Of a DNA stretch of 64,000 nucleotides, positions 41,311 through 59,991 are shown piece after piece. The DNA lies in contig NZ_JAHVJQ010000003.1 in the NCBI RefSeq assembly GCF_019801145.1, forward strand, positions 1 to 64,000. Direction: 5' to 3'. Both the position numbers and the translations under genes were made by a program. Numbering within the stretch: the first letter of the stretch is position 1; each line of letters begins with the position of its first letter. Source of the stretch: Leisingera aquaemixtae (GTDB taxonomy: Bacteria; Pseudomonadota; Alphaproteobacteria; Rhodobacterales; Rhodobacteraceae). The notes under the pieces are model-generated. The model made no database searches, had not been told where the DNA came from, and saw only the letters and a program-made list of their open reading frames with translations.

Positions 41311-41631
41311 ACCTGATGTCAGAACCCATGTGTGAACCTCTCATTTAGGGCCGATCAGCGCGCGGGTTGCAGCAAATCAATTCCAAGCCGGAACTAAACC
41401 GAACGTTATTGATCCGCAGTTCCGGCGTGCTCCGGCAAGAAGAGCGGCCCAATTGCGCATTTTGCAAAATTTGACCGGAGCTGTTAATCTATGCCAGAAG
41501 AATTAGGTTTGTTCGCAATGCTTTGCGGCAAGATCACCGGTGGGTGGCCCCTGTAAGCAAGGGCTGGCGCAACTCTCTGACAGCGAACACTCTTTCGAAA
41601 ATGACGCGGCCGGGATCGGAGGTTCGGCAGC

Positions 41632-42618
41632 ATGGAGTATGTTCTGACGCTATTGCCGATGCTTGTCAAAATGGCCATCGTTGTGGGCGTTTTGCTGCTG
41701 CTTCCGCTGCCGCTGACCTGGATGGAACGGAAAATTGCCGCCCATATCCAGCAGCGCCCTGGGCCGATGCGGGTGGGCTGGCATGGCCTTCTGCAACCGC
41801 TGGCTGATGCGGTCAAGCTGCTGACCAAGGAAGACCACATCCCGGCGGAGGCCGACCGGCGGCTGTTTGCGATGGCGCCAGTGGTGGCGCTTGTGCCGCC
41901 GTTCCTGGTGTTTACCGCCATCCCGTTTGGTGACCCGGTTCAGGTCTTCGGGACCGAGGTCTCGCTGATGCTGTCAGACATGAACGTGGGGCTTCTATTC
42001 ATCCTTGCGGTCTCCGGGATCGGTGTGTTCGGCACCATCCTCGCGGGCTGGGCATCAAACAGCAAATACGCAGTGCTGGGCAGTTTGCGGTCGATCGCGC
42101 AGATGATCTCTTACGAAATCCCGATGGGCTTCTCGGTGATCGGGGTGGTGATGCTGGCCAGTTCGATGAACTTGAGCCAGATCGTTGCGGCGCAGGAGGG
42201 CCTATGGAACGTGGTTGTGCAGCCGGTCGGCTTTTTCGTGTTCTTCGTCGCCGGGCTGGCCGAGGCGCAGCGCATCCCGTTTGATCTGCCCGAGGCAGAG
42301 GGCGATCTGGGTGCGGGGTATCACACCGAATACAGCGGCATCCGGTTCTCACTGTTCATGCTTGCGGAATACCTCGTGGTGGTGATGCTGGCGGCGCTTA
42401 ACGTGCTCCTGTTCTTCGGCGGCTGGAAAGGCAGCCCGTTCTTCCTGCCGGACACCGTCTGGTTTCTGCTGAAGATCGGTTTCTTCGTCTGGGTGTTCAT
42501 GTGGTTCCGCTTCACCTTTCCGCGCTACCGCTATGACCAGCTGATGGCGATCGGCTGGAAGGTGCTGCTGCCGCTGTCCCTGCTCAATATCCTGGTCAGC
42601 GGGATACTGATGCTATGA
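41632..42618 (+). CDS. nuoH: NADH-quinone oxidoreductase subunit H
   Basis: This 328-residue membrane subunit forms much of the quinone chamber. Family patterns are MERKIAAHIQQRPGPMRVGW, LLQPLADAVKLLTKED, AQMISYEIPMGFSVIGVVML, AEAQRIPFDLPEAEGDLGAG and YHTEYSGIRFSLFMLAEYLV. It is the first gene of the complex I operon, with GGAGG upstream. Starting the operon with nuoH-nuoI rather than nuoA is unlike the usual alphaproteobacterial order and supports a separate origin of this locus. Confidence 0.95.
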   Translation: MEYVLTLLPMLVKMAIVVGVLLLLPLPLTWMERKIAAHIQQRPGPMRVGWHGLLQPLADAVKLLTKEDHIPAEADRRLFAMAPVVALVPPFLVFTAIPFGDPVQVFGTEVSLMLSDMNVGLLFILAVSGIGVFGTILAGWASNSKYAVLGSLRSIAQMISYEIPMGFSVIGVVMLASSMNLSQIVAAQEGLWNVVVQPVGFFVFFVAGLAEAQRIPFDLPEAEGDLGAGYHTEYSGIRFSLFMLAEYLVVVMLAALNVLLFFGGWKGSPFFLPDTVWFLLKIGFFVWVFMWFRFTFPRYRYDQLMAIGWKVLLPLSLLNILVSGILML

Positions 42619-42635
42619 TACGGGAGTGAGATAAT

Positions 42636-43214
42636 ATGGCCAGAACAACAGTAAAGGGAACGGGCTGGATCGGCAGGCTCTTCTTCTTCGATCTTCTGGC
42701 AGGGTTGCGTCTGACGCTGCGCTACATGTTTTCCAAGACGGTGACGCACCGCTATCCCGACCATGAGAAATGGGTGCCCTACGAGCGTCACCGCGGCCAT
42801 CATTTCATCAAGACTAATGACGAAGGCGATGTGAACTGCGTGGCCTGCGAGCTGTGCTCGCAGATCTGCCCCTGCGACTGCATCACCGTCATTCCCTATG
42901 AAAACGAGAAAGGTGACCGGCGCCCGAAAGTGTTTGATATCAATCTGGCGCGCTGCCTCTATTGCGGGCTGTGCGAAGATGCCTGTCCGGCGGACGCAAT
43001 CAAACTAGGTCAAGAATATGAGGTCGCCTGCGATGACCGGCCCAAGCTGGTGGTGCATTTGGAGGATCTGGTGGCCGCGCCGCGCAAGGCCGCGGACGGC
43101 GGCCAGGTGCGGCCAGCAAAGCTGGAGCCTGGCAGTGGGCGGCGGTCGGTGGCCACTGCGGCGGCCGGCGCTGAAGGCTACGACTGGTGGCGGCACATAC
43201 GGAAGGGAAAGTGA
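42636..43214 (+). CDS. nuoI: NADH-quinone oxidoreductase subunit I
   Basis: This 192-residue protein carries two 4Fe-4S clusters of the N6a/N6b type. The first ligand set is CVACELCSQIC with a following CP, and the second is CLYCGLCEDAC. It bridges the peripheral arm to the quinone site. The first motif has two extra cysteines (QICPCDC) compared with common NuoI. The C-terminal 45 residues are a longer, alanine/glycine-rich tail. It is 17 bases after nuoH, and a CBS-domain gene follows. Confidence 0.94.
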   Translation: MARTTVKGTGWIGRLFFFDLLAGLRLTLRYMFSKTVTHRYPDHEKWVPYERHRGHHFIKTNDEGDVNCVACELCSQICPCDCITVIPYENEKGDRRPKVFDINLARCLYCGLCEDACPADAIKLGQEYEVACDDRPKLVVHLEDLVAAPRKAADGGQVRPAKLEPGSGRRSVATAAAGAEGYDWWRHIRKGK

Positions 43215-43281
43215 AGCGTATTTGGAACCGGCCCGGCCTAGGAGAGCGGCATGGGCCTAATCAGATAGGGGGAGCAAGAAA

Positions 43282-43725
43282 ATGTATGTCAAAGCAGTGT
43301 TGGGGCTGAAGGGATATGAAACCTATTCGGTTGCGCCGGACGACAGTGTTTTGACGGCTTTGCAATTGTTCAATTCCAACAAGGTCGGATTTGCAGTTGT
43401 CCGGGACACAGCCGGCAAGGTGGTTGGCGGAATTTCGGAACGCGATATCTGTATTGCGCTGTCGGATCCGGACGGGGCCGGACGGAAATCCGCTGTGCGC
43501 GAGGTTATGACTACAGATATTCTCACCTGTTCGCCGGACGACAACCTTATCAGGCTCATGGCGGTCATGACGGAAAAGAGAAACCGGCACATGCTGGTCT
43601 ATGACGATGAGGGCCTGCAAGGCGTCATCAGCATCGGCGATGTGGTAAAGCACCGCCTGGATGAGATCATGCGCGAGGAAGAAGAGCTTCTGAAGTACAT
43701 CGAAGGCACCGGCTACAGCGCATGA
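43282..43725 (+). CDS. CBS-domain protein embedded in the complex I operon
   Basis: This 147-residue protein has two CBS motifs. The first runs from TYSVAPDDSVLTALQLFNSN to GISERDICIALSD, and the second from DILTCSPDDNLIRLMAVMTE to GVISIGDVVKHRLDEIMREE. Paired CBS motifs bind adenine nucleotides or NAD(H)-like ligands and regulate attached or partner proteins. It has no catalytic domain, so it is a likely stand-alone sensor. Its location between nuoI and nuoJ, with its own ribosome site (GGGGGAG), suggests stoichiometric expression with the complex. Confidence 0.88.
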   Translation: MYVKAVLGLKGYETYSVAPDDSVLTALQLFNSNKVGFAVVRDTAGKVVGGISERDICIALSDPDGAGRKSAVREVMTTDILTCSPDDNLIRLMAVMTEKRNRHMLVYDDEGLQGVISIGDVVKHRLDEIMREEEELLKYIEGTGYSA

Positions 43726-43787
43726 CAGCAGCGGCAGCGGGCCATCAGGAAGATAAGAGCGGGAGAAAATATTCAGGGAGGGCATAG

Positions 43788-44339
43788 ATGGAACAGGCAT
43801 TTTTTATTCTGCTCTCAGCGGTTGCGGTGGGGGCGGGGCTGCTTGTGGTAATTGCCCGGAACCCTATCCACAGCGCGCTGGCGCTGGTGGCTTGCCTGGT
43901 TCAGATCGCCGCGCTGTACGTGCTGCTTGGCGCGCCCTTCCTCGCAGTGATCCAGATATTTGTCTACGTCGGTGCCGTGATGGTGCTGTTCCTGTTCGTC
44001 ATCATGATGCTGGACGTGCGCAAGGAGGCACAGGCCCGTTTTCTGCCCAGGGCGCCGCTGCCGGGTGTAATCGTGCTGCTGATCCTGGCAGGTGAGCTGA
44101 TTTTCCTGTTGCTGCAGAGCGCCCGCCTGCACGCGGTCATGGGGCCGGGGCCGCGGGTCGCCGAACAGCCGTCTGTGGCGGATCTTAGCCTGTTGCTGTT
44201 CCAAGAGTATCTGCTGCCGTTTGAGGTGGCTTCAGTGATCCTGCTGGTTGCCCTGATCGGGGCAGTGGTTCTGGCCCGCAGCGATGAGGCCGATGAAAAA
44301 GCGGCACAGGGCAAGGCCACGCGCGGGGCAGCCCGATGA
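43788..44339 (+). CDS. nuoJ: NADH-quinone oxidoreductase subunit J
   Basis: This 183-residue protein has five predicted membrane segments. Family pattern [20 protein letters not shown] near residue 25 and [20 protein letters not shown] match the TM3 region involved in coupling. AGGGAGGG is just upstream. The stop overlaps the start of nuoK by 4 bases. Confidence 0.93.
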
Positions 44340-44638
44340 TCCCCACATCTTGGTACCTGATCCTGGCGGCGGTGTTGTTTGTAATCGGCGGCGCCGGGGT
44401 TCTGCTGCGCCGCAATGTGCTGATCGTGCTGATGTCGCTGGAGCTGATGCTGAACAGCGTGACTATCAACCTGGTCGCCTTCGGCCATGCGCTGCAGGAC
44501 CTGCGCGGCGAAATCATCGCCATTTTTGTTATTGCCATCACCGCGGCGGAAGTTGCGGTCGCGCTTGGCATTCTGGTCGCCTTGCTGCGCAACAACCACA
44601 CGCTGGAAGTGGATGAACTGACTGTTTTGAAGGGGTGA
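44336..44638 (+). CDS. nuoK: NADH-quinone oxidoreductase subunit K
   Basis: This 100-residue, three-segment subunit has the two conserved membrane glutamates in [18 protein letters not shown] and [19 protein letters not shown]. It sits between nuoJ and the antiporter-type modules and passes charge along the membrane arm. Overlap with nuoJ indicates translational coupling. Confidence 0.94.
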
Positions 44639-44642
44639 ACTG

Positions 44643-46133
44643 GTGGAGTTCCTGCTGTCGATCCGGCCGCTTCTGGCCATTGCCGTAAGCCTGGCGGCAG
44701 CGGGGCTGATCCTGTGCCTGCACCAGCGCCCCAACCTGCGGGATGCGGTATCCGTGGCCGCGGCGGTGCTGAAGTTCCTGATAGTGATTTCGATGGCTCC
44801 GCTGGTGCTGGCCGGCGGCACGCTGGAGCTTAGTTTGTTTGAAATCCTGCCGGGGGTGGATTTTGCCTTCAGAGCGGACGCGCTTGGGATGGTGTTCGCC
44901 ACTGTGTCCAGCCTGCTGTGGATTTTTGCCGCCCTCTATTCCATCGGCTACATGCGCAGCCTGAACGAACATGCGCAGACCCGGTTCTTTGCCGCCTTCG
45001 CAGTGTCTTTGTCGGCGGCGGTGGGCGGGGCCTTTGCGGCCAATCTGTTCACTCTGGTAATCTTTTACGAAGTGCTGAGCCTTGTGACTTATCCGCTGGT
45101 CTACCACAAGGAGGACAGCGAAAGCTGGGCCGGCAGCCGCCGCTATGCGGTCTATCTGATCGGCGCCTCGAAATCCTTTCTGCTGGCAGCGCTGGCGCTT
45201 ACTTATCAGTTGGCCGGTTCGCTGGATTTTCTGCCGCAGGGGCTGCTGGCGGGTTCTGGTGCCGAGGGCTGGCTGCTGAGTGCGGTCTATCTCTGCTACC
45301 TCGCAGGTTTTGCCAAGGCGGCAGTGATGCCGTTCCACGCCTGGCTGCCCGCTGCGATGGTGGCGCCGACCCCGGTGAGCGCCTTGCTGCACGCAGTTGC
45401 CGTGGTGAAGATGGGCGTGTTCTGCATGCTGAGGGTGATTTTTCATGTGATCGGCGTCGATTTGATGGGCAGCCTGGGGCTCGGCATTGCCACTGCCTAC
45501 CTGGTGTCCTTTACTATCGTGATGGCCTCGGTCTATGCTCTGACCCGCGACGACCTGAAGGCGCGGCTGGCCTATTCGACTGTCAGCCAGCTCTCCTACA
45601 TCATCCTGGGAGCGGTGCTGCTGACGCCGATGGCGGCGATTGGCGGCATCACCCATATTGCGGCGCATGCGTTTTCCAAGATCACGCTGTTCTTCTGCGC
45701 CGGTTCGATCTACTGCGCCTCGCACCGCCGCAACATCAGTGATTTGTCAGGCATCGGGCGGCGGCTGCCCTGGACCATGGCAGCGTTTTTCATTGGCTCG
45801 CTGGGCATGATCGGCATTCCGCCCTCCGGCGGGTTTGTCAGTAAATGGTATCTGGTGCTGGGATCGGCCGGGGGCCAGGAGATGGTGTTCCTGACCGTGC
45901 TTCTGGCCAGCGCGCTGCTCAATGCGGCCTATTTCCTGCCAGTGACTTACACCGCGTTCTTTGAGGCTGAGAAACCCGGCACCCCTGGTCTGGTGGCGAT
46001 GCAGGACGTGCGCGAGATCCCGATGGTGGCGGTGCCATTGCTGATCACAGCACTGTTGTCCTTGGCGCTGGGGCTGAATCCGGGCTTCTTCGTTGAATTG
46101 GCGCAGCTTGTGATGCGCGGAGCGGGGCTGTGA
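44643..46133 (+). CDS. MrpD-like antiporter-type subunit in the complex I operon
   Basis: This 496-residue, roughly 14-segment protein of the NuoL/M/N-MrpD family most resembles monovalent cation/H+ antiporter subunit D. Channel residues are present: Glu143 in FYEVLSLVTY, Lys224 in GFAKAAVMPFHAWLP, and a TM8 lysine in HAVAVVKMGVF. The start is GTG, 4 bases after nuoK. It lacks a NuoL-type C-terminal lateral helix. In a usual operon NuoL would be here. The operon also has an L-like gene, NuoM and NuoN, so this is an additional, fourth pump-like module. Confidence 0.85.
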   Translation: MEFLLSIRPLLAIAVSLAAAGLILCLHQRPNLRDAVSVAAAVLKFLIVISMAPLVLAGGTLELSLFEILPGVDFAFRADALGMVFATVSSLLWIFAALYSIGYMRSLNEHAQTRFFAAFAVSLSAAVGGAFAANLFTLVIFYEVLSLVTYPLVYHKEDSESWAGSRRYAVYLIGASKSFLLAALALTYQLAGSLDFLPQGLLAGSGAEGWLLSAVYLCYLAGFAKAAVMPFHAWLPAAMVAPTPVSALLHAVAVVKMGVFCMLRVIFHVIGVDLMGSLGLGIATAYLVSFTIVMASVYALTRDDLKARLAYSTVSQLSYIILGAVLLTPMAAIGGITHIAAHAFSKITLFFCAGSIYCASHRRNISDLSGIGRRLPWTMAAFFIGSLGMIGIPPSGGFVSKWYLVLGSAGGQEMVFLTVLLASALLNAAYFLPVTYTAFFEAEKPGTPGLVAMQDVREIPMVAVPLLITALLSLALGLNPGFFVELAQLVMRGAGL

Positions 46134-46387
46134 TGATCGGCCGGCTGGTGAATTTCTTCGGCGACACGCGGTACAAGAGGCTGCGCTGGCGGCTGCTGGT
46201 GGTGGTGCTGGGGCTGATCCTGATCGCCGATCTGCTGGTGCCGCGCCACCACAGCGAACACTTCTGGGACGCCATCCCCGGCTGGGGGGCGGTGTTCGGC
46301 TTCGCCAGCTGCGTGGCTATCATCTTCGTTAGCAAGTTCATCGGCCACAAGGGCGGTATCATGCGGGACGAGGGCTATTATGACTGA
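46130..46387 (+). CDS. Small two-TM protein of the complex I operon
   Basis: This 85-residue protein has two hydrophobic segments (LRWRLLVVVLGLILIADLLV and WGAVFGFASCVAIIFVSKFI) and charged ends. Its start overlaps the preceding stop, and its end overlaps the next start (46380). I do not recognise it as a standard Nuo or Mrp subunit. The tight overlaps on both sides imply a structural or assembly role in the membrane arm, perhaps between the two antiporter-type subunits encoded on either side. Confidence 0.7.
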   Translation: MMIGRLVNFFGDTRYKRLRWRLLVVVLGLILIADLLVPRHHSEHFWDAIPGWGAVFGFASCVAIIFVSKFIGHKGGIMRDEGYYD

Positions 46388-48152
46388 GTGGCTGCACCCT
46401 GCAATGCTGATGCTTCTGGGCGCGCTGCTGCTGCCGCTCATCCGCGGCACCGTACAAAAGCTGCTGTCGCTGATCGTGCCGCTGCTGGTGCTGTACAGCG
46501 TGTCGCAGATGGAACCGGGCAGGTCCGGCGCAGTCGCTTTTGCCGGCATTGAGCTGGTGCTGTTCCAAGCTGACAAGCTGTCGCTGGTCTTTGCTTGGGT
46601 CTTTGCCATCATGTCGGTGATCGGCAACCTCTATGCTTGGCATATAGAGGGCACCGGCCAGCGGGTTGCCGCATTTCTGTATGCGGGCAGCGCCTTTGGG
46701 GTGGTCTTTGCCGGCGACTGGCTGACGCTGCTGATAGGTTGGGAGGTGATGGCCTTTGCCTCCGCCTATCTGATTTTTGCCTCGTGCAATGCCAAGGCAG
46801 TGGCGGCGGGGTTTCGCTATCTGCTGGTTCATGTGGCGGGCGGGGTGCTGCTGTTTGGCGGCATTGTGCTGCACGGGTTGCAGACCGGTTCCTGGCTGGT
46901 GGGGCCGCTGGATGCGGGGCAGGGGGGCTTGGCCTACTGGCTGATCCTGGTCTCTTTCCTGATCAATGCGGCGGTGCCGCCTCTCAATGCCTGGCTGACT
47001 GATGCCTACCCCGAAGCCACTGTGACCGGCGCCGTGTTCCTCAGCGCCTTCACCACTAAAACCGCCGTTTACGTGCTGATCCGCAACTACCCGGGGACGG
47101 AGATCCTTGTGGGGCTCGGCGTCGCCATGGCGCTTTACGGGGTGGTGTTCGCGGTGCTGGAAAACGACTGCCGCAGGCTGCTGGCCTATCACATCGTCAG
47201 CCAGGTGGGTTACATGGTGGCAGGCGTCGGGATCGGCACCGAGATGGCGCTGAACGGGGCCGCCAGCCATGCCTTTGCCCATATCCTCTACAAGGGGCTC
47301 TTGTTCATGGGGGCTGGCGCCGTGATCATGATGGCCGGGCGGCGCAAACTGACCGAACTGGGCGGGCTGTACCGGACGATGCCGCTGACCGTTGTGCTGT
47401 ACATGATCGGCGCTTTTGCCATTTCGGCCTTTCCCCTGTTCAGCGGGTTTGTCAGCAAATCTATGGTGGTCTCCGCTGCCGCCGGGGACCACCGGGCGGC
47501 GGCGGCGCTGCTGCTGACCGTGGCCTCCTCCGGCACTTTCCTGCACACCGGGTTGAAGCTGCCCTATTACATGTTCTTCGGCAAAGACAGCGGGCTGCGG
47601 CCGCCGGAGCCGCCGCTGAACATGCTGCTGGCGATGGGTATCGCCGCAGCCTTCTGCATCGGCATCGGGGTCTATCCGCAGATACTTTATGCGCTGCTGC
47701 CCTATCCGGTGGACTACCAGCCCTATACCGGCGTGCATGTTACCGAGAGCCTCGGCATCCTGATGTTCACCCTTCTGGCCTTTGTGCTGCTGCTGAAACG
47801 CCTGGATCCGGAAGACACCATCAGCCTGGACACCGATTGGGCCTACCGGCGCGGCGCGGCGCTGTTCATGCGATTGGCCAAAGGGCCGGTTCTGGTTTGG
47901 GAACAAATGCTGATCACCTTGGCCGACGGTGCCGGGCTGCGGCTGATGCACCGCCTGTCGCGGCTGAGCCTGCAAGTGGACCTCGGGGTGGTGGATGCGC
48001 TGGTCAATGGCGTGGCTGAGACCGCCCGCCAAGGCGGGCTGGTGCTGCGCAGGCTGCAGACCGGTGTGGTGTCGCACTATGCTTTCTGGATCATTGCCGG
48101 GCTGATTGCAGTGCTCGGGCTGCCGCTGGTCACCGGGATAGGTGCGCGATGA
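46380..48152 (+). CDS. NuoL/MrpD-like subunit with a lateral-helix-type C-terminus
   Basis: This 590-residue protein of the antiporter family keeps the TM5 glutamate (Glu122 in GWEVMAFASAYLIF) and a TM8 lysine (Lys227 in SAFTTKTAVYVL). The TM7 lysine position is Asn196 (FLINAAVPPLNAWLTDAY). After the last regular segment, about 85 mostly non-membrane residues include VDALVNGVAETARQGGLVLR, followed by a TM with LQTGVVSHYAFWI. That resembles the NuoL lateral helix and its anchor. It probably takes the distal NuoL place. Overlaps on both sides show one operon. Confidence 0.8.
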   Translation: MTEWLHPAMLMLLGALLLPLIRGTVQKLLSLIVPLLVLYSVSQMEPGRSGAVAFAGIELVLFQADKLSLVFAWVFAIMSVIGNLYAWHIEGTGQRVAAFLYAGSAFGVVFAGDWLTLLIGWEVMAFASAYLIFASCNAKAVAAGFRYLLVHVAGGVLLFGGIVLHGLQTGSWLVGPLDAGQGGLAYWLILVSFLINAAVPPLNAWLTDAYPEATVTGAVFLSAFTTKTAVYVLIRNYPGTEILVGLGVAMALYGVVFAVLENDCRRLLAYHIVSQVGYMVAGVGIGTEMALNGAASHAFAHILYKGLLFMGAGAVIMMAGRRKLTELGGLYRTMPLTVVLYMIGAFAISAFPLFSGFVSKSMVVSAAAGDHRAAAALLLTVASSGTFLHTGLKLPYYMFFGKDSGLRPPEPPLNMLLAMGIAAAFCIGIGVYPQILYALLPYPVDYQPYTGVHVTESLGILMFTLLAFVLLLKRLDPEDTISLDTDWAYRRGAALFMRLAKGPVLVWEQMLITLADGAGLRLMHRLSRLSLQVDLGVVDALVNGVAETARQGGLVLRRLQTGVVSHYAFWIIAGLIAVLGLPLVTGIGAR

Positions 48153-49627
48153 ACGGCCTGCCCGTCCTCAGTATCCTGATCCTGCTGCCTGTGGCGGGGG
48201 CAGCCGTGGTGCCATTCCTGCGCGGCAGGGATGCGGTGCGCTGGTTCACCCTTCTGGTGCTGTTGGCGGATTTCCTTCTGGCGGTCTGGATCCTGGCCGC
48301 CTTTGATCCGGCTTCCGCCGCGATGCAGTTCCGCGAGGCCCGCATCTGGGTGCCCGCGCTGAATATGGGCTACCGGCTGGGCATCGACGGCATCAGCGTC
48401 TGGTTTGTGCTGCTGACCACGCTGCTGGGCTGGATTTGCGTGCTAGCCTCCTGGCGCGCGATTGCCGAGCGGGTCAAGGAGTTCATGACCTGCCTGCTTG
48501 CCATCCAGGCCATGATGGTGGGCGTGTTCTGCGCCCTCGATCTGGTGCTGTTCTACGTGCTGTGGGAAGTGATGCTGGTACCGATGTATCTGATCATCGG
48601 CATCTGGGGCGGCGGGAACCGGATCTATGCCGCGTTCAAGTTCTTCCTTTACACTCTGGCGGGCAGCTTGCTGTTCCTGGTCGGTTTGCTGGCGCTGTAT
48701 TTCGCGGGCGGGCGCACCTTTGACATGCTGGCGCTGATGGCGGCGGAATATCCGTTCCGGCTGCAAGTCTGGGTGTTCCTGGCCTTTCTGGTGGCCTTTG
48801 CGGTCAAGGTGCCGATGGTGCCTGTGCACACCTGGTTGCCGGATGCCCATGTGCAGGCGCCGACGGCGGGCAGCATCATCCTGGCCGGTGTCTTGCTGAA
48901 GATGGGTGCCTATGGTTTTCTGCGCTTCTCGCTGCCAATGCTGCCGGATGCCTCGCAATACCTGGCGCCGTTGATGATCACCCTCTCGGCTGCCGCTATT
49001 GTCTATGGCGGGCTCTTGGCGCTGGCGCAGAACGACATCAAGAAACTGATCGCCTATTCCAGCGTCAGCCATATGGGATTTGTCACCCTCGGGCTGTTTA
49101 CCTTTGAGGTAAACGGCATGTCCGGCGCGGTGATCCAGATGTTCAATCACGGCATATCAACCGGCGCGCTGTTCCTGTTTGTCGGGCTGATTTACGAACG
49201 CACCCACAGCCGCGAAATTGCCGCCTACGGCGGCATGATCAAGGCTGTACCGGTTTTTGGCATCCTGTTTGCGGCTTTTCTGCTAGCGTCCATGGCCGTG
49301 CCTGGCACCAATGGCTTCATCGGCGAAATCCTGGTGCTGGCGGGCACTTTCGGGGTCAGCGGCTGGGCCGGGACCGCCGGGGTGCTGGGGGCGCTAATCG
49401 GGGCGGCTTATCTGCTGGGGCTGTACCGGCAGATGCTACTGGGGCCGGTCAAAGTGCCGGAGGGATCCGTGATGCAGGACCTTCGCCACCGTGAATTGGC
49501 CTGCGCGGCGCCGCTGCTGCTGTTCGTGTTCTGGTTCGGCCTGTATCCAAAGCCCTTCCTTTCCATCCTGCAGCCATCACTGGATCACTTGATGACCCAG
49601 ATTGTGCCAACGGGGACGGCGCAATGA
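48149..49627 (+). CDS. nuoM: NADH-quinone oxidoreductase subunit M
   Basis: This 492-residue antiporter-type subunit has the family segments YVLWEVMLVPMYLIIGIWGG (TM5 Glu), FAVKVPMVPVHTWLPDAHVQ (TM7 Lys) and LLKMGAYGFLRFS (TM8 Lys). NDIKKLIAYSSVSHMGFVTL follows. Length and motifs are standard for NuoM. The ATG overlaps the L-like stop. It is followed 10 bases on by nuoN. Confidence 0.94.
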   Translation: MNGLPVLSILILLPVAGAAVVPFLRGRDAVRWFTLLVLLADFLLAVWILAAFDPASAAMQFREARIWVPALNMGYRLGIDGISVWFVLLTTLLGWICVLASWRAIAERVKEFMTCLLAIQAMMVGVFCALDLVLFYVLWEVMLVPMYLIIGIWGGGNRIYAAFKFFLYTLAGSLLFLVGLLALYFAGGRTFDMLALMAAEYPFRLQVWVFLAFLVAFAVKVPMVPVHTWLPDAHVQAPTAGSIILAGVLLKMGAYGFLRFSLPMLPDASQYLAPLMITLSAAAIVYGGLLALAQNDIKKLIAYSSVSHMGFVTLGLFTFEVNGMSGAVIQMFNHGISTGALFLFVGLIYERTHSREIAAYGGMIKAVPVFGILFAAFLLASMAVPGTNGFIGEILVLAGTFGVSGWAGTAGVLGALIGAAYLLGLYRQMLLGPVKVPEGSVMQDLRHRELACAAPLLLFVFWFGLYPKPFLSILQPSLDHLMTQIVPTGTAQ

Positions 49628-49637
49628 GGAGGGCGGC

Positions 49638-51092: not shown

Positions 51093-51204
51093 GGAGGCCC
51101 ATTGGTGTATGCTTGCGGCAAGAAGAGAACACCGCGGCAGGTGCTGCCGGAACACTAAGCCTGAGGAGGGTCGGACAGGGTCGAACACATAAGGAAAGAC
51201 AGCA

Positions 51205-51567
51205 ATGCCTATCGATTTTCTTCCTGTGTTTCTGATGGTTGCCGTAGTCGTCGCGCTTTCGGTGTTCATCCTGACTCTGTCGCGGCTGATCAGGCCGGCC
51301 AATCCTTACCCGGAAAAGAACCGGCCCTATGAATGCGGCGTCGATCATGTCGGCGAGGCGTCGGGGGGGCTGTTCAAGGTTCAGTATTTCGTGATTGCCA
51401 TTCTCTTTGTCGTGTTCGACGTCGAGACCATGTTCCTGTTCCCGTGGGCGGTGGTGCTCACTGACCTCGGGCTCTTCGGCTATATCGAGATGTTTGTGTT
51501 CATCGCGCTGCTGCTGGTCGGTTTTGCCTACGCCTGGATAAAGGGAGCTCTGGAATGGGTGTCCTGA
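51205..51567 (+). CDS. nuoA: NADH-quinone oxidoreductase subunit A
   Basis: This 120-residue, three-segment subunit has [20 protein letters not shown] and the highly conserved [20 protein letters not shown] loop-helix. The cysteine in YECG is the redox-state-sensitive loop residue of the family. It overlaps nuoB by 13 bases. Confidence 0.94.
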
Positions 51568-52064
51568 CCAACCGCTTCCAAGACAGCGTGTTTTTCACCA
51601 CTTCGGACAACATCATCAACTGGAGCCGCAAATCATCGCTGTGGCCGCAGACCTTCGGCATTGCCTGCTGCGCAATCGAGATGATTTCCGCGGGCTGCTC
51701 GCGCTATGACCTGGACCGGTTCGGGGTGGTGTTCCGGCCCTCGCCGCGGCAGTCGGACGTGATGATCGTGGCCGGCACGGTGACCCGGAAAATGGCGCCG
51801 ATTGTTCGCCGCCTTTATGACCAGATGGCCGAGCCTCGCTATGTCATCGCGATGGGAACCTGCGCTATTTCCGGTGGCGTCTACAACACTTATGCGGTGG
51901 TGCAGGGCGTTGATTGCATCATCCCGGTGGACATTCACGTGGCCGGCTGCCCGCCGCGACCCGAGGCGCTACTGCATGGTTTCCTGCAGTTGCAGGAGAA
52001 GATCACTGGCACACGGGTGCTGCGGGCCGAACCGGATACGCTGCCGGCTCCTGAGGGTGCGTAA
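51555..52064 (+). CDS. nuoB: NADH-quinone oxidoreductase subunit B
   Basis: This 169-residue subunit holds the terminal N2 cluster at the quinone site. The ligands are the tandem cysteines in GIACCAIEM, one in MGTCAISGG and one in [14 protein letters not shown]. Start overlaps nuoA. The gap to nuoC is 2 bases. Confidence 0.95.
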
Positions 52065-52066
52065 CC

Positions 52067-52576
52067 ATGGGTGAGGCAATTCCCCTTGCAGGCGTCCTGG
52101 AGCGGTTCTGCAGCAGGGTTGCGCTGGATGAAACGGCGGCCGACATGCCCTGCCTTTGGGTGCCGCCCGAAGACCTGGTGGAGCTGTGCCTGTGCCTGCG
52201 GGACAATTCAGAGCTGCAGTTCAATTTTCTTTCCGATATCTGCGGTGTGGATTTCCACCCGGAGACCCCGCGCTTCCAACTGGTCTATCACCTGGTGTCG
52301 ATCCCCAACCATTGGCGGTTGCGGCTGAAGTGCCAGCTTGGCGACCCGCCGGTCGCGCCCACCATCACCCAGGTCTGGACCACCGCAAACTGGCACGAGC
52401 GGGAGGCCTATGACATGTACGGCATCCTTTTTGACAACCACCCGGATCTGCGGCGGCTCTATATGTGGGATGAATTCGACGGCTTCCCGATGCGCCGCGA
52501 CTTTCCCCTGCGCGGCTACAAGGACGGCATGAACCCGCTGGGCGTTGAACGGACGGAAAACGGGGGCGGGGCATGA
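52067..52576 (+). CDS. nuoC: NADH-quinone oxidoreductase subunit C
   Basis: This 169-residue 30-kDa-type subunit is not fused to NuoD. The family signature is NWHEREAYDMYGILFDNHPD followed by RLYMWDEFDGFPMRRDFPLR. It is somewhat short at the N-terminus relative to mitochondrial-type NuoC. It overlaps nuoD by 4 bases. Confidence 0.94.
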   Translation: MGEAIPLAGVLERFCSRVALDETAADMPCLWVPPEDLVELCLCLRDNSELQFNFLSDICGVDFHPETPRFQLVYHLVSIPNHWRLRLKCQLGDPPVAPTITQVWTTANWHEREAYDMYGILFDNHPDLRRLYMWDEFDGFPMRRDFPLRGYKDGMNPLGVERTENGGGA

Positions 52577-53790
52577 CCGAAGTCACAACCCTGCAGGAAA
52601 CTCCGGCTGGCAGCGGCTATGCGCGCGAAGTGCTGATGAACCTCGGCCCGCAGCACCCTAGCACCCACGGCGTTCTGCGCCTGCTGCTGCAGATGGACGG
52701 GGAGATTGTTGAGCGGATCGAGCCCCATATCGGCTTGCTGCACCGGGGCACTGAAAAGCTGTTCGAAAGCTTCACATACACGCAGATTTTCCCGCTGACC
52801 GACCGCTTGGACTATCTCTGCCCGCCGTCCAACAACCTGGGCTATGCGCTGGCAGTCGAGGCGCTGCTAGGGATCGAAGCGCCAGTGAGAGCGCAGTACA
52901 TCCGAGTTATCATGGCGGAACTCGCGCGCATTTCCGGCCATCTGCTGATCACCGGCGCGCTGCCGATGGACGTCGGCGCGATGACTTCGCTGCTTTACAC
53001 TATGCGTGACCGCGAGATGGTCTTGGACCTGATGGAGATGATCAGCGGGGTGCGGATGCACACCTCCTTTGTCCGGGTCGGCGGCGTACGCGAGGACCTG
53101 CCGGATGGCTGCGAAGAACGAATTCTGGAGTTCTGCAACATCTTCGCGGACCGGATTTCGGATTATGAAACCTTGCTGAAAAACAACCGCATCTTCCTCG
53201 CCCGGGTAGAGAACATTGGCAACATTGCCGCCGAGGATGCCATCGCCCTTGGCCTTACCGGACCCAACTTGCGGGCCTCCGGCGTGGACTGGGATCTGCG
53301 CCGGGATGCGCCCTATGAAATCTATGACCGGCTGGAGTTCAACGTGATCACCCGCAAGGACGGCGATTGCTATGACCGCTGGAAATGCCGCTTGGACGAG
53401 ATGCGCGAAAGCCTGCGGATGATCCGGCAATGCGTGGAGCAGATGCCCAAGGGCGATTTCCTGGTCGATGATCCGAAGATCGCCTTCCCGGTCGACAAGG
53501 ACCTGCTGGCCCATTCGATGGAAACCCATATCCACCACTTCGAACTGGCAGCCTATGGGTTCAAGGTCCCGAAGGGCGAGGTCTATTCCGCCATCGAGGC
53601 GCCCAAGGGCGAGCTGGGATATTACCTGATTTCCGACGGCAGCGAGAAGCCGTTCCGGCTCAAGGTGCGCTCGCCTTCCTTCGTCAACCTGCAGGCACTG
53701 ACCGAACGCACCACCAACATGAAGTACCTGGCGGATGTGATCGCCATGCTCGGCAGCCTGGATCCGGTGATGGGGGAGGTTGATAAATGA
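52573..53790 (+). CDS. nuoD: NADH-quinone oxidoreductase subunit D
   Basis: This 405-residue 49-kDa-type subunit forms the quinone pocket with NuoB. Markers are NLGPQHPSTHGVLRL, HIGLLHRGTEKLFE, DRLDYLCPPSNNLGYALAVE and the C-terminal LMGEVDK-type end (DPVMGEVDK). The quinone-site HGVLR histidine is present. Stop overlaps nuoE by 4 bases. Confidence 0.95.
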   Translation: MTEVTTLQETPAGSGYAREVLMNLGPQHPSTHGVLRLLLQMDGEIVERIEPHIGLLHRGTEKLFESFTYTQIFPLTDRLDYLCPPSNNLGYALAVEALLGIEAPVRAQYIRVIMAELARISGHLLITGALPMDVGAMTSLLYTMRDREMVLDLMEMISGVRMHTSFVRVGGVREDLPDGCEERILEFCNIFADRISDYETLLKNNRIFLARVENIGNIAAEDAIALGLTGPNLRASGVDWDLRRDAPYEIYDRLEFNVITRKDGDCYDRWKCRLDEMRESLRMIRQCVEQMPKGDFLVDDPKIAFPVDKDLLAHSMETHIHHFELAAYGFKVPKGEVYSAIEAPKGELGYYLISDGSEKPFRLKVRSPSFVNLQALTERTTNMKYLADVIAMLGSLDPVMGEVDK

Positions 53791-54299
53791 CCGACGACCG
53801 CACCGTTGCCGGGATCAAAGCCGCGCTGGCTGCCCAGGTGCAGGAAGCCGCGGCGCGCTACCCCACCAGCCGCAGCGCAATCATGCCCGCGCTTGAGCTG
53901 GCCCAGCAGAAATACGGCAGCGTCGATGGCACCACCTATCAGGCCGTTGCTGAGTTGCTGGACGTCCCGGAAATCTGGGTGTTTGAGGTGGCGAGCTTCT
54001 ACACCTTGTTCGACCGGGCGGAGCCAGGGCGCCATCACCTGCGCCTTTGCACAAACGTGTCCTGCATGTTGCGCGGGGCGGAGGAGATACTGGACTGCCT
54101 GCAAGAGCAACTGTCGGTGAAAGACGGGGAAACAACGGCAGACGGGCTGATCACGCTCAGCGGTGTGGAATGCCTGGGCGCTTGCGACAAGGCGCCGGTT
54201 CTGATGGTTGATGATGAGTATCATGAAGACGTCACTGCAGAGACGCTCGACGCGCTCCTGAAGGTCCTTACGCGTGAGGCAAAGGAGGGCGCGGCATGA
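53787..54299 (+). CDS. nuoE: NADH-quinone oxidoreductase subunit E
   Basis: This 170-residue thioredoxin-like 24-kDa-type subunit carries a 2Fe-2S cluster (N1a). Ligands are in LCTNVSCMLRG (two Cys) and VECLGACDKAP (two Cys). It pairs with NuoF in the NADH module, whose start overlaps its stop. Confidence 0.94.
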   Translation: MTDDRTVAGIKAALAAQVQEAAARYPTSRSAIMPALELAQQKYGSVDGTTYQAVAELLDVPEIWVFEVASFYTLFDRAEPGRHHLRLCTNVSCMLRGAEEILDCLQEQLSVKDGETTADGLITLSGVECLGACDKAPVLMVDDEYHEDVTAETLDALLKVLTREAKEGAA

Positions 54300-55573
54300 G
54301 CGAACTGGTGCTTCTCAAGAACATTGAGAACCCCGATGCGCCTGACATCTCTGTCTATGAACGCTCCGGCGGTTATGAAGGCATGAGGATCGTGCTGGCC
54401 GGCTACGCGCCGGATCAGGTGATTGAAGCCGTAAAGACGTCAACCCTGCGCGGGCGGGGCGGGGCCGGTTTCCCCACCGGTCTGAAGTGGAGCTTTGTTC
54501 CAAAAGACAGCGGCAAGCCGCATTATCTGTGCTGCAACGCCGATGAGGGCGAGCCGGGCACCTTCAAGGACCGCATCCTGATGGAGCGCGATCCGCACCA
54601 GCTTATCGAAGGCATGATCATCGCCGCTTATGCGATCGGCAGCAACACAGCATATTTGTACATCCGCGGAGAATACGGGCTGTCGGTGCGGCGCTGCGAA
54701 CAGGCCATCGTGGCGGCCCGCGCGAAGGGTTATCTTGGCAAGGACATTTTGGGCAGCGGCTTTGATCTGGATATTCACATCCACAAGGGGGCCGGCGCCT
54801 ATATCTGCGGCGAGGAAACTGCGCTCCTGGAATCAATCGAAGGCAAGCGCGGCCAGCCGAAGTTGAAACCACCGTTCCCGGCGGTAGCGGGCCTTTACGA
54901 ATGCCCCACCGTGGTCAACAACGTGGAAACGCTTGCTTGCCTGCCGCATCTGTTCCGCCGCGGGGTGGAGTGGTTCACCTCGATGGGGCCCAAGGACGGG
55001 CCGGGGCCCAAGCTGTTCTGTTTCAGCGGCCATGTGAAAGCACCCGGCGTTTATGAAGCGCCGATGGGGTTGCCTCTGGGCGAGATGCTGGAGGTTTATG
55101 GCGGCGGCGCAATCAACGGCCGCTTCAAGGCAGCAATCCCGGGCGGCGTGTCGGCGCCGATGTTCCCAGAGAGCGGTTTCGATGTGAAGATGGACTTCAG
55201 CTCCTTGGCGGAGGCAGGCAGCATGCTGGGGTCTGCCGGGGTGATCGGCCTGGATGAGAGTGCGTCAATCCCGCGCGTGGCGCGGCGCATTACAGAGTTT
55301 TTCAGCCATGAAAGCTGCGGCAAATGCACTCCCTGCCGTGAAGGGTTGACTTGGGCCGCCAAGATACTGCGCCGGATAGAGGCCGGCGAGGGCTCGCCCG
55401 GCGATGTGGAGCAGCTTGAAATGCTTTGCGGCAGCATCTTTGGTAAATCCTTTTGCGCGCTCGGCGATGGAGCTGCTTGGTCCTTGGGAGCGGCGCTCAA
55501 GCACTTCCGGCATGAGTTCGAGGCGCTGATTCCAGTCCAGGCACAGCCAGTGCAGGAGATGCGGCTATGGTGA
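54296..55573 (+). CDS. nuoF: NADH-quinone oxidoreductase subunit F
   Basis: This 425-residue 51-kDa-type subunit binds NADH, FMN and the N3 cluster. NADH and FMN loops are GRGGAGFPTGLKWSFVP and CNADEGEPGTFKDRILMERD. GAYICGEETALLESIEG follows, and the N3 ligands are ESCGKCTPCREG plus a later Cys in GKSFCALGDGAAW. It overlaps nuoG by 7 bases. Confidence 0.95.
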   Translation: MSELVLLKNIENPDAPDISVYERSGGYEGMRIVLAGYAPDQVIEAVKTSTLRGRGGAGFPTGLKWSFVPKDSGKPHYLCCNADEGEPGTFKDRILMERDPHQLIEGMIIAAYAIGSNTAYLYIRGEYGLSVRRCEQAIVAARAKGYLGKDILGSGFDLDIHIHKGAGAYICGEETALLESIEGKRGQPKLKPPFPAVAGLYECPTVVNNVETLACLPHLFRRGVEWFTSMGPKDGPGPKLFCFSGHVKAPGVYEAPMGLPLGEMLEVYGGGAINGRFKAAIPGGVSAPMFPESGFDVKMDFSSLAEAGSMLGSAGVIGLDESASIPRVARRITEFFSHESCGKCTPCREGLTWAAKILRRIEAGEGSPGDVEQLEMLCGSIFGKSFCALGDGAAWSLGAALKHFRHEFEALIPVQAQPVQEMRLW

Positions 55574-57978
55574 CGTTCACCCTGGATGGCCGCGAACTGC
55601 AGGTTGAACCGGGCACCACCATCCTGCAGGCCGCGCGATCTGCTTCAGTCGAAATCCCCACCTTTTGCTATCAGGAACGCCTGTCAATCTCTGCCTCCTG
55701 CCGGATGTGCCTGGTCGAGATCGAGGGCCGCGGAAAGCTGGAGCCCTCCTGCGCCACCGCGGTGGCCGAAGGCATGGTGGTGCACAGCCGCTCTGACCGG
55801 GTTGTGGAGACACGAGAGGACATGCTGGAGATCCTGCTCGCCAATCATCCGCTGGACTGCCCGGTCTGCGACAAGGGCGGCGAATGCGAATTGCAGGACA
55901 CGGTATTCGAATACGGCCGCGGCAGCTCACGCCTGCGCGACCCGAAACGGGTGTTCCGCGAGCGGGATATCGAGCTCAACCAGGTGATCGTCTTCAACGC
56001 CAACCGCTGCATCCAGTGCCAGCGCTGCGTGCGTATGTGCGAGGAAATCGTCGGCGACGTCGCGTTAGGCACCTCTGAGCGCGGGTTGGACTCTGAAATC
56101 ACCGGCACCGGCAACAGCCTGAAGGACTGCAGCCATTGCGGCAATTGCATCGAGGTCTGCCCGGTGGGCGCGCTGATGAGCATCCCCTACCGGTACAAGG
56201 CGCGCCCCTGGGACATGCAGCGGACCGAAACAATCTGCGGCATGTGCGGCACTGGCTGCAGCATGACGGTGGAGACACGCGACGGAGAATTCAAGCGGGT
56301 GAAAAGCCGCTTTGATACCGGAATCAACGGCGAACTGCTGTGCGCCAAGGGCCGGTTTGGGTTTGATGCCATTGGCGTCGGCGATCGCATCCGCGAGCCG
56401 ATGATCAGGAAGAATGGCGGCCTGGCGTCGGTCAGTTGGGCGGAGGCAATCGGTTTCGTGGCCGCAAAGGCCCGCGAAGTCCAAGAGCAGGGCGGCAGCA
56501 TCCAAGGGCAGATTTCGCCGCGGCAGACCAATGAAACCGCGTTCATGTTTCAGCGGCTGATGCGGCAGGCCTTCAGCACCCAGGACATCCGCTCCAGCAC
56601 GCGCTTCAGCGGTCTGCAGGCTGACGGGGCAATTGCAGCTCTGGCGCAGACCGTTGGAGAGCTTGCGGCCCGCAGGCCGTTGGACAGCCTTCTGAAGGCA
56701 GATTGCATTTTCGTGCTGGGGTCGAATGTGACCGATGAGAACCCGGTCAGCGGCTATTTGATCCGCGCGGCGATGGCAGATCCCGGCAAACGGCTTCTGG
56801 TGGCAAGCTCCCGGCCCTGCGGCCTGGACGGGATAGCGGCTGCAAAGCTGCGCCTGCTGCCGGGCCGGGAGGTGCATCTACTGGCGCAGCTCACTGCAGG
56901 CGGGCAGGAGGTGGAGAGCCGCGCCATGGCCGGGTTTACAGGTGCTGCCGAACCGGTCTTGGCTGGTGCAGAGAGTATTGCCCTGCTGGCTGGGACTGAA
57001 TTCCTGCGCACCGGCGCGGCCGCCGAAACGTTGCAGTGGATTGCACATGCGGTTGCTCATTACTCGGCTCAAGGCAAGGCAGTCCAACTGCAGTTCCTTT
57101 TTGACCGGCCGAACCAACTGGGCTTGTGGGATATGGGCTGCCTGCCGGGTGTTTTGCCGGGCTGGCGGCCTAGCAAGGGTTCCGAAGCGCCAGCGGACGA
57201 GGCGCCGGGGCTGCTGTATGTCCTGAGCGCCGACCCGGCCCGCACCTGGCCGGACACAGGACCAGGCGACAGGGGCGGGCGGCGTGCGGGTTGCTTGGTT
57301 GTGCACGGACCCCATATGAACGCTACGGCAGAACTGGCGGATGTGCTGTTGCCAGCCCCGTCATATGGCGAGGAAGACGGGACCTTCACAAACAACGAAG
57401 GACGGGTGCAGCAGGTACAAGCGGTCAAGGCCGCCGGCTATGACGGGCCAACGCCGCGGCAGGTATTCAAGCAAATTGCGCAAGCCATGGGTGAGGAACT
57501 GCAACCGGTTTCTGCGGAACAGGTGCAGGCTGCGATTGCAGAGGAGGTGCCGGGATTTGGAGCATTCGGGGTGGAAGGGACATCTGAAGTTCCTGCTGGG
57601 GAAGTGCCGGCTTCTGCATTGCCGTTGTTGCCCGATGATGGCGACAGTCAGAGTCAGGAGCGCTATCTTGTCACGGGCGACGGCCTGTTCCAGTCCGGTC
57701 AGCTGTCAACCCGTTCGGAATGCCTGTCTATGCTTGGCGGTGGACCCTATGTGGAGTCGAACCCAGGAGAAGGTTATGCCCAAGCTGCCGGTGCGCTGTC
57801 AGTTCGGATCTCGTGCCAAGGGGCAAGCTTTACCGCGCCCCTGAAGATCAACACCGCATTTGACGAAAAGACGGTCTTTATTCCAGAATGTTATCTGGTG
57901 AATGGCGAAAATAGCCTGCTTGCGGATGCCGGCTACCCGCCAAGAGTAACGGTGGAGTTGCTGCCTCTGGAAGATTGA
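55567..57978 (+). CDS. nuoG: NADH-quinone oxidoreductase subunit G, N7-containing type
   Basis: This 803-residue 75-kDa-type subunit has the N-terminal 2Fe-2S ligands (PTFCYQERL, ASCRMCLVE, PSCATAV), the HxxxCxxCxxxxxC-type segment (HPLDCPVCDKGGECELQD), and the N5/N4-type 4Fe-4S set (CIQCQRCVRMCEE, CSHCGNCIEVCPVGAL). A further four-cysteine set CGMCGTGCSMTV plus LLCAKGRFG matches the N7 cluster of E. coli and Thermus NuoG. The mitochondrial and classical alphaproteobacterial form usually lacks N7. The C-terminal molybdopterin-like domain is degenerate. It closes the operon. Confidence 0.94.
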   Translation: MVTFTLDGRELQVEPGTTILQAARSASVEIPTFCYQERLSISASCRMCLVEIEGRGKLEPSCATAVAEGMVVHSRSDRVVETREDMLEILLANHPLDCPVCDKGGECELQDTVFEYGRGSSRLRDPKRVFRERDIELNQVIVFNANRCIQCQRCVRMCEEIVGDVALGTSERGLDSEITGTGNSLKDCSHCGNCIEVCPVGALMSIPYRYKARPWDMQRTETICGMCGTGCSMTVETRDGEFKRVKSRFDTGINGELLCAKGRFGFDAIGVGDRIREPMIRKNGGLASVSWAEAIGFVAAKAREVQEQGGSIQGQISPRQTNETAFMFQRLMRQAFSTQDIRSSTRFSGLQADGAIAALAQTVGELAARRPLDSLLKADCIFVLGSNVTDENPVSGYLIRAAMADPGKRLLVASSRPCGLDGIAAAKLRLLPGREVHLLAQLTAGGQEVESRAMAGFTGAAEPVLAGAESIALLAGTEFLRTGAAAETLQWIAHAVAHYSAQGKAVQLQFLFDRPNQLGLWDMGCLPGVLPGWRPSKGSEAPADEAPGLLYVLSADPARTWPDTGPGDRGGRRAGCLVVHGPHMNATAELADVLLPAPSYGEEDGTFTNNEGRVQQVQAVKAAGYDGPTPRQVFKQIAQAMGEELQPVSAEQVQAAIAEEVPGFGAFGVEGTSEVPAGEVPASALPLLPDDGDSQSQERYLVTGDGLFQSGQLSTRSECLSMLGGGPYVESNPGEGYAQAAGALSVRISCQGASFTAPLKINTAFDEKTVFIPECYLVNGENSLLADAGYPPRVTVELLPLED

Positions 57979-58440
57979 GTGCGAGGGCACCCTAGAGTTA
58001 CGGCAGTTGACCACAAAAAAGCGAAATGGCGGCACGCCCGAGACACCGCTGCTAATAGCTGTGGAAGAGTATGGGGCCGGTAAGGACGTTCTGAACTAAA
58101 TCCTTGGGACGGACCTTGGAGTAACCCAGGTTTTGCGGAGAGCGTTCAGCACACTTCTTGGGCGTGTCGTTTGAAAGCGTTGTGAACCGCGCTGGGCTAA
58201 TTCAGCTAGTTATCCGGCCACCCCAAGGTTCCATTGCCGGACTGATGACGGCAATACGCCTGATATAGAAACTCGCATCGGCCTGCCGCCATTTTCGAAG
58301 CTTTGATGTCTCCAACCTTCAGTGCCGAAGTGGACCGGCGGAGGCCGAGTGCTCTTGCAGAGACCGCGCTAAGCGGCATTGGAATCGTCGGCCTTATCAC
58401 AGCCATTCCGGAACAAAGCCCGGAACGGCTGCTTACAGGA
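57979..58440. other. Gene-free gap after the complex I operon
   Basis: These 462 bases have no supported gene. A reading at 58303-58440 (LAETALSGIGIVGLITAI) has the hydrophobic feel of a transporter end, but no start, stop or family could be assigned. It may be a gene remnant. Confidence 0.45.
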
Positions 58441-59979: not shown

Positions 59980-59991
59980 GCGGCGCCCTCC

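What the first reader, a model, noticed from the sequence alone, without database searches (positions are those of the whole stretch)
41632..57978. Complex I operon with four antiporter-type subunits
Standard complex I has three antiporter-type subunits (L, M, N). This operon encodes four: 44643-46133 (MrpD-like), 46380-48152 (L-like), NuoM and NuoN, plus an unassigned two-TM protein between the first two. All core subunits are present, so it can be a working enzyme. If all four modules assemble, the ratio of ions moved per NADH could be higher or the ion could be Na+. Enlarged complex I variants with an extra M-type subunit have been described in other bacteria. The gene order here, starting with H-I, makes this one distinctive.
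Basis: partly seen in the sequence, partly recalled or inferred. Interest (0 to 1): 0.8.

Follow-up and report, generated by a model that had tools for sequence, protein, structure and literature searches.

The report
Second complex I with extra pump
This bacterium carries a second, apparently laterally acquired copy of the respiratory enzyme complex I in which the usual end subunit is replaced by two related ones plus a small helper; the type is already published, but one of the two replacements lacks a lysine that normally drives pumping, so the extra subunit may not mean extra pumping.

Summary
41632-57978 is one collinear 17-gene operon: nuoH-I-(CBS)-J-K-D'-X-L'-M-N-A-B-C-D-E-F-G, with four antiporter-type genes (D', L', M, N) and an unnamed 85-aa two-helix protein X.

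It is not new in kind. It is 'green complex I', published for rhizobia in 2016 as two MrpD-like subunits replacing NuoL. My named scan finds the same J-K-D'-X-L'-M-N block in Rhizobium freirei, Sinorhizobium and several other phyla. The host genus is Leisingera by inference. There the operon is patchy (3 of 21 genomes) and lies beside a canonical complex I.

What I add:
- D'-X-L' also ends Mrp antiporter operons, so it looks like a ready-made Mrp-type module.
- L' has Asn at the TM7 pumping-lysine site in 70 of 70 complex-I-context loci (69 distinct). D', M and N keep full residue sets.
- The lateral helix of L' is about 7 residues longer than in the host's own NuoL, not the ~26 reported for other enlarged arms.

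So four modules probably assemble, but three intact pumps seem likelier than four. A higher ion/NADH ratio is unproven and Na+ is untested.

The parts
41632..42618 (+). nuoH
   Evidence: Pfam NADHdh 406 bits
42636..43214 (+). nuoI
   Evidence: TIGR01971 144.8 bits, cut-off 113.05; no Pfam family at E 1e-10
43282..43725 (+). two-CBS-domain protein, possible nucleotide-sensing regulator (inferred)
   Evidence: Pfam CBS 78 bits; follows H-I in L016, L017/L025, L024, L027 and in R. freirei L102 and S. meliloti L109
43788..44339 (+). nuoJ
   Evidence: Pfam Oxidored_q3 141.7 bits
44336..44638 (+). nuoK
   Evidence: Pfam Oxidored_q2 95.2 bits; NF004320 105.8, cut-off 57
44643..46133 (+). D': extra antiporter-type subunit with full pump residues E143, K225, H250, K256, K401
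   Evidence: NF006236 763 bits, cut-off 663; own clade; residues
46130..46387 (+). X: 85-aa two-TM accessory protein, conserved C-terminal E-x-Y-Y
   Evidence: 84 of 84 related loci, 83 by BLAST and one by eye; alignment A3; AF2 helices 13-36 and 52-74, mean pLDDT 82.4, pTM 0.50
46380..48152 (+). L': diverged L-type subunit with lateral helix 487-559; Asn196 at the TM7 lysine site
   Evidence: NF009310 750 bits, cut-off 564; AF2 mean pLDDT 85.9; residues; tree
48149..49627 (+). nuoM
   Evidence: TIGR01972 615.8 bits
49638..51092 (+). nuoN (start at ATG preferred)
   Evidence: TIGR01770 452 bits
51205..51567 (+). nuoA
   Evidence: Pfam Oxidored_q4 127.6 bits
51555..52064 (+). nuoB
   Evidence: Pfam Oxidored_q6 102.9 bits
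52067..52576 (+). nuoC
   Evidence: Pfam Complex1_30kDa 157.5 bits
52573..53790 (+). nuoD
   Evidence: Pfam Complex1_49kDa 379.5 bits
53787..54299 (+). nuoE
   Evidence: Pfam 2Fe-2S_thioredx 168.5 bits
54296..55573 (+). nuoF
   Evidence: Pfam Complex1_51K 166.9 and NADH_4Fe-4S 109.8 bits
55567..57978 (+). nuoG with extra 4Fe-4S cysteine motifs
   Evidence: Pfam set incl. Fer4_Nqo3 and Molybdop_Fe4S4; comparison with own canonical and R. freirei NuoG

Best explanation
This is a green-type complex I, very probably gained by lateral transfer, the second NADH:quinone oxidoreductase of a Leisingera-type roseobacter (type shown by homology; genus inferred from a contig match). The peripheral arm and H-A-J-K-N-M are of ordinary families. 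In place of NuoL it carries a module D'-X-L' that also exists in Mrp antiporter operons (shown). D' probably sits in the arm as the third full proton channel. L' probably caps the arm and ties it together with its lateral helix. X probably glues D' to L' (all inferred). Because L' has Asn at the TM7 lysine site, I expect three intact antiporter-type channels, so about the usual ~4 H+ per NADH (recalled figure) rather than more, with H+ the likely ion (inferred). The enzyme most likely serves low-oxygen or anaerobic respiration beside the housekeeping complex I (inferred from the reported up-regulation of its rhizobial relatives in symbiosis).
For: Operon and annotation. Canonical nuoA-N elsewhere in the genome. 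Same block in R. freirei PRF 81 (D' 75%, L' 66% identity) and the whole set incl. H-I-CBS on pSymA of S. meliloti 1021. Published description of green complex I: PMC9040806 passages; PMC7415380 passages. Trio at the end of Mrp operons E-F-G-B-B-C-D-D'-X-L'. L' one clade (100) beside NuoL and MrpA, D' one clade (100). TM7 Asn in 70 of 70 complex-I-context L' while D' 67/67, M 67/67 and N 62/62 keep Lys; L109, L111, L112, all with NuoM next to L', also Asn. TM7 Lys matters: K229A in NuoL severely reduces complex I activity (PMC4938563 passages, citing other work); MrpA-K223 and MrpD-K219, which I take to be the same site, extremely important for antiport (PMC5703873 passages). Extra NuoG cysteines. 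Lateral transfer: 3 of 21 genus genomes, DNA similarity ends at the operon edges, Leisingera operons group with Moritella and an uncultured gammaproteobacterium apart from Ruegeria/Rhizobium.
Against: No biochemistry exists here for assembly, ion or stoichiometry. L' keeps TM5 Glu, TM8 Lys and TM12 Lys in 82 of 82 context-assigned loci, so strong selection acts on it and TM8 Lys might stand in for the missing one. In one published test K229A in NuoL made no difference when NuoL complemented a B. subtilis mrpA mutant. 11 of 12 Mrp-context L' in the first set also have Asn, so the loss is not a response to complex I. The L' placement beside NuoL/MrpA has support 91 and a long-branch warning on the NuoL-MrpA join. 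The lateral helix is hard to square with D' lying between L' and M.
Confidence: 0.6

Rival explanations
1. All four antiporter-type subunits pump, so the enzyme moves more ions per NADH.
For: Four Proton_antipo_M proteins; TM5 Glu, TM8 Lys and TM12 Lys kept in L'; passages count a fourth ion-pumping subunit.
Against: TM7 Lys replaced by Asn in 70 of 70 complex-I-context L' plus L109, L111, L112; lateral helix about 7 residues longer than own NuoL, not ~26.
Confidence: 0.25
2. D'-X-L' forms a separate Mrp-type Na+/H+ antiporter that merely shares the operon.
For: The same trio occurs in Mrp operons; NCBIfam names both large proteins antiporter subunit D.
Against: None of the operon's proteins matches an Mrp B, C, E, F or G of L018/L019 at E 1e-3; the trio lies between K and M in 62 of 70 complex-I-context loci; of the other 8, L033, L056, L093 and L096 are cut by contig ends, L037 and L086 have overlapping open frames sorted differently, L071 has an X that BLAST missed, and only L092 has a truly different order; no NuoL in the operon.
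Confidence: 0.05
3. D' is bolted on beyond L' at the far tip of the arm (order N-M-L'-D'), with X as adaptor, instead of lying between L' and M.
For: Lateral helix length close to canonical NuoL, which would suit L' lying directly next to M; gene order D'-X-L'-M-N parallels K-L-M-N.
Against: An L' lacking TM7 Lys in the middle would interrupt the charged axis (inference); gene order is not a reliable guide to position (L092 has K-M-D'-X-L'-N).
Confidence: 0.25

Closest known systems
[quoted passage not shown] original paper not held, known here through passages of PMC9040806, PMC7415380 and PMC4967309)
   Same: Two MrpD-like subunits in place of NuoL, second operon beside a standard one, extra NuoG clusters, homologous genes in Rhizobium freirei PRF 81 and on S. 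meliloti pSymA
   Different: Here H-I-CBS precedes J in one collinear operon; in R. freirei and S. meliloti H-I-CBS is a separate block convergent with J-to-G. The Leisingera enzyme falls in a different sub-clade
Nitrospira 2M complex I (Chadwick et al. 2018; paper not held, known through passages of PMC9040806)
   Same: Four antiporter-type subunits
   Different: There the extra is a second NuoM and NuoL has an insert of about 26 residues in the lateral helix; here one NuoM, no such insert
Complex_I_3 of Candidatus Manganitrophaceae (PMC9040806 passages)
   Same: D' and L' type subunits (called MrpD there)
   Different: That one has two NuoM as well, five in all, and a 26-residue helix insert
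Mrp antiporter operons ending D-D'-X-L'
   Same: Same D'-X-L' module (L' 48-64%, D' 50-52% identity to the window in 12 loci)
   Different: No redox subunits; shorter lateral helix in 9 of 12, longer in 3 of 12; TM7 site Asn or Lys

Membership tests
Green complex I | Two MrpD-like subunits replace NuoL | tested here: met
   D' and L' hit antiporter-subunit-D equivalogs above cut-off; TIGR01974 NuoL only 173.5 and 127.1 bits, cut-off 407.5
Green complex I | Homologous to the operon of Rhizobium freirei, the organism of the 2016 figure reprinted in PMC7415380 | tested here: met
   PRF 81, the one R. freirei locus the scan returned: D' 75%, X 57%, L' 66%, H 71%, A-G present (L031, L102). That this is the operon of the paper is inferred, the paper was not held
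Green complex I | Second operon beside a standard 14-gene one | tested here: met
   canonical A-N at G000:C1
Green complex I | NuoG with additional 4Fe-4S clusters | tested here: met
   Cys motifs in window and R. freirei NuoG absent from own canonical NuoG (by reading); cluster content itself not measured
Green complex I | Rearranged gene order | tested here: met
   Not A-to-N; J-K-D'-X-L'-M-N-A-to-G as in rhizobia, H-I position differs
Green complex I | Up-regulated in symbiosis | not testable with these tools
   No expression data; nearest FNR-like box at up to 1 mismatch is at 37531, 4 kb upstream, and such a match is expected by chance
2M complex I | Extra subunit is a NuoM | tested here: not met
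   One NuoM; D' outside the NuoM clade
2M complex I | Insert of about 26 residues in the lateral helix of NuoL | tested here: not met
   Interval 88 against 81 in own NuoL
Mrp antiporter | Small subunits B, C, E, F, G | tested here: not met
   None among the operon's 17 genes; NuoK matches an MrpC model only at 20.6 bits, cut-off 107
Na+-pumping enzyme | Na+ transport | not testable with these tools
   Needs transport assays

The most novel reading that the evidence does not exclude
Green complex I is not a four-pump enzyme. The module that replaced NuoL splits the job of NuoL in two: D' supplies the pump, and L' has lost the TM7 lysine and survives as a structural or gating cap. Published counts of its ion-pumping subunits, and the energy budgets built on them, would then be one too high, perhaps also for the five-subunit type of manganese oxidisers: a Nitrospirota cluster of the same make-up (L101) shows the same Asn.
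Probability: 0.45. Interest if true: 0.65.

Novelty: new member of a known kind. Interest (0 to 1): 0.45.

Why it matters
Enlarged complex I variants are used to argue that bacteria can change how many ions are moved per NADH. If one of the added subunits is a lysine-less cap, this natural system separates 'number of modules' from 'number of pumps', which bears directly on the open question of how each antiporter-like subunit of complex I contributes to pumping. It also suggests that a complete respiratory complex moves between alpha- and gammaproteobacteria as one operon, and gives the unnamed protein X a testable role.

Tried and rejected
Rejected: extra-NuoM (2M) type; separate Mrp antiporter; chance ORFs; D' as a plain MrpD duplicate (own clade). 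An early idea that lateral-helix length simply counts modules was dropped: L098 has the long interval (114) with only four antiporter genes in its cluster, and three Mrp-context copies have 102-104. TM7 Asn is not a mark of complex-I context alone: 11 of 12 Mrp-context L' in the first set also have it, while L019 and all 9 Rhodobacterales copies of lower score fetched later (L113-L121) have Lys. No empty insertion site could be shown: in G012, the one of the 20 relatives searched where both flanking stretches matched well (88% and 95%), they lie on different contigs. No plasmid RepA match on the window's contig, so the replicon type is open. FNR-box search: nothing near the operon. A structural search of the L' model could not be run in library pdb_via and I did not run the other fold libraries. 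Searches of the held paper library for the TM7 change (0 papers; related searches) showed no mention in what I saw of them (listings, and passages of some papers); the two founding papers were not held, so it may be in print there.
Full report
The operon. Seventeen genes run 5'-3' on the + strand from 41632 to 57978: nuoH, I, a CBS-domain gene, J, K, D', X, L', M, N, A, B, C, D, E, F, G. All 17 were scanned against Pfam or NCBIfam or both and all but X match the expected family. D' matches NF006236 (763 bits, cut-off 663) and L' NF009310 (750, cut-off 564), both named (putative) monovalent cation or Na+/H+ antiporter subunit D; neither reaches the NuoL model TIGR01974 (173.5 and 127.1 bits, cut-off 407.5). 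M and N score as ordinary NuoM and NuoN. The same genome has a canonical nuoA-N operon on contig C1 (L100; its NuoL scores 1058 bits against a solved NuoL, 8qby), an MrpA/MrpD-like pair (by reading) and a lone antiporter-family gene on C3.

What it is. [quoted passage not shown] PMC7415380 (passages) says about 70 Alphaproteobacteria, mainly Rhizobiaceae, have it as a second operon, that it is rearranged in gene order and up-regulated in symbiosis, and reprints a figure on Rhizobium freirei. In R. freirei and on S. meliloti pSymA H-I-CBS lies next to it, convergent (L102; L109). The window NuoG has cysteine motifs for extra 4Fe-4S clusters that R. freirei NuoG shares and the host's canonical NuoG lacks (by reading); a legend in PMC4967309 (passages) gives additional 4Fe4S clusters in the NuoG of green complex I. 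So the filing as green complex I is tested, not only recalled.

Host and transfer. L025 is Leisingera sp. ANG-M1 contig_19, 170429 bp; L017, from G020:C11 of the window's own genus, is the same contig (same length; 16.5 kb of L017 found letter for letter in L025). The genus name is therefore inferred. Only 3 of 21 genus genomes (window included) match X. In L016 DNA similarity to the window spans 41429-58000 and stops; in L017/L025 it spans 41644-57479 in three blocks. The copies thus sit in different surroundings. In 196 genomes drawn from the order, 3 have an L' over 940 bits (window included) and 9 have one of 602-649 bits. The two other high scorers (L111, L112) have NuoM next to L'; the nine low scorers (L113-L121) have D'-X-L' and no NuoM match within the ~1.5 kb held, so they are taken as Mrp-type without their Mrp genes having been seen. 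A concatenated D'+L'+M+N tree of 19 operons groups the Leisingera copies with Moritella, an uncultured gammaproteobacterium and a Rhodobacterales bacterium (100), apart from Ruegeria, Defluviimonas and rhizobia (100) (quick search, SH-aLRT only; six rows flagged for odd composition, among them L017 but not the window).

The module. Of 84 loci (L016-L099; 83 distinct), 70 are complex-I context, 12 Mrp context and 2 unassigned. D'-X-L' is contiguous in 65 of 70, 12 of 12 and 1 of 2. The exceptions are three contig ends (L033, L056, L093), one ORF-order artefact (L037), one where X was missed by BLAST but is readable (L071), and L076 with no D' found. Mrp-context operons read E-F-G-B-B-C-D-D'-X-L' in the fuller cases (e.g. 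L018, L019, L080, L097). In a FastTree of 98 rows (a chosen subset) all 25 L' form one clade (100) and all 25 D' another (100); L' joins NuoL+MrpA at 91, with a long-branch warning; M and N join their canonical counterparts. Canonical L, MrpA and MrpD are represented by one row each, apart from eight MrpD of trio operons. So 'MrpD-like' fits D' loosely and L' poorly: L' looks like a diverged L/A-type subunit.

Pump residues. At the TM7 lysine site L' has Asn196: N in 70 of 70 complex-I-context loci (69 distinct) and 11 of 12 Mrp-context loci. The two unassigned loci, S. meliloti (L109) and L111-L112 are also N; L110 is the window again. L101, a five-antiporter cluster, reads LVNAGGPPLHAW in its translation, although the pattern scan missed it. 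L019 and all 9 of L113-L121 have K. TM5 Glu122, TM8 Lys227, TM11 His301/Lys305 and TM12 Lys360 are invariant over the 82 assigned loci. D' keeps Lys225 in 67 of 67 and 12 of 12 (three complex-I loci and one unassigned locus gave no D' row); its TM8 Lys256 is N in one of 67 and one of 12. M keeps Lys220 in 67 of 67 and N Lys226 in 62 of 62 complex-I loci that gave a row. PMC4938563 (passages) calls the equivalent NuoL K229 universally conserved, with K229A known to reduce complex I activity severely, though without effect in its own B. subtilis system. PMC5703873 (passages) says lysines K223 of MrpA and K219 of MrpD, which I take to be this site, are extremely important. Helix numbering as TM5/7/8/11/12 is recalled.

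Lateral helix. From the end of TM15 to the T/SG before TM16 the interval is 87-89 in 69 of 70 complex-I-context L' and 114 in L098; 69 in 7, 71-72 in 2 and 102-104 in 3 of 12 Mrp-context copies; 81 in the host's NuoL (the last figure depends on one distant alignment). AlphaFold2 gives one helix, 487-559, and TM16 564-586; mean pLDDT 85.9, but only about 55-76 in that region. The reported ~26-residue lengthening of other enlarged arms is absent here, in line. So either the helix reaches only M, or D' lies beyond L'. The TM7 Asn argues for L' at the end, the helix length for D' at the end; I cannot settle this.

X. 85 aa, two predicted TM helices (13-36, 52-74), no Pfam family at a convincing level in 40 members (best E 0.0024, one member), none in NCBIfam or the PDB. 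G57, C61, I65, S68, K69, G72, E81, Y83 and Y84 are kept in at least 90% of 40 sequences. Adaptor between D' and L' is inference from constant position.

Verdict. Real, complete, already a published kind; a new, apparently laterally spread member. The fresh points are the Mrp-module link seen across phyla, the constant X, and above all the lysine-less L', which makes 'more ions per NADH' doubtful and testable.

Noticed in passing
window 39054-39872 (-): IS3-family transposase about 1.8 kb upstream of the operon, in line with a mobile history.
   Followed up: partly
window 43282-43725: CBS-domain gene kept next to H-I in several alphaproteobacterial green operons, including R. freirei and S. meliloti; possible regulator by nucleotide sensing.
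   Followed up: partly
window genome C3:108292-108936 (L010, L104): Lone antiporter-family protein that looks DabB-like (recalled, not tested) and by reading has Ala at the TM7 lysine site.
   Followed up: no
L101 and L098 (genome G041, Nitrospirota): One genome with a five-antiporter complex I cluster (L101) and a four-antiporter one (L098); both L' have the long lateral helix (L101 by reading), so helix length does not simply count modules.
   Followed up: partly
L092 (Desulfocapsa): Different order K-M-D'-X-L'-N: the trio stays together while M moves.
   Followed up: no
L052, L053, L055, L058, L059, L061 (Desulfobacterota MAGs): H-I-J-K-D'-X-L'-M-N clusters, A-B-C-D in front in five of the six, with no nuoE or nuoF hit in the fetched stretch (some cut by contig ends), only NuoG-like pieces in some; another electron donor is possible.
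   Followed up: no
L113-L121, L019: Low-scoring, probably Mrp-type L' of Rhodobacterales and the Mrp-context L019 keep Lys at TM7, unlike 11 of 12 Mrp-context copies of the first set.
   Followed up: partly
window 58441-63699: Tripartite tricarboxylate transporter genes tctA and tctC on - strand, and a TctD-like response regulator and sensor kinase on + strand.
   Followed up: no
window 7532-8731: Protein with FrhB/FdhB domains; not examined.
   Followed up: no
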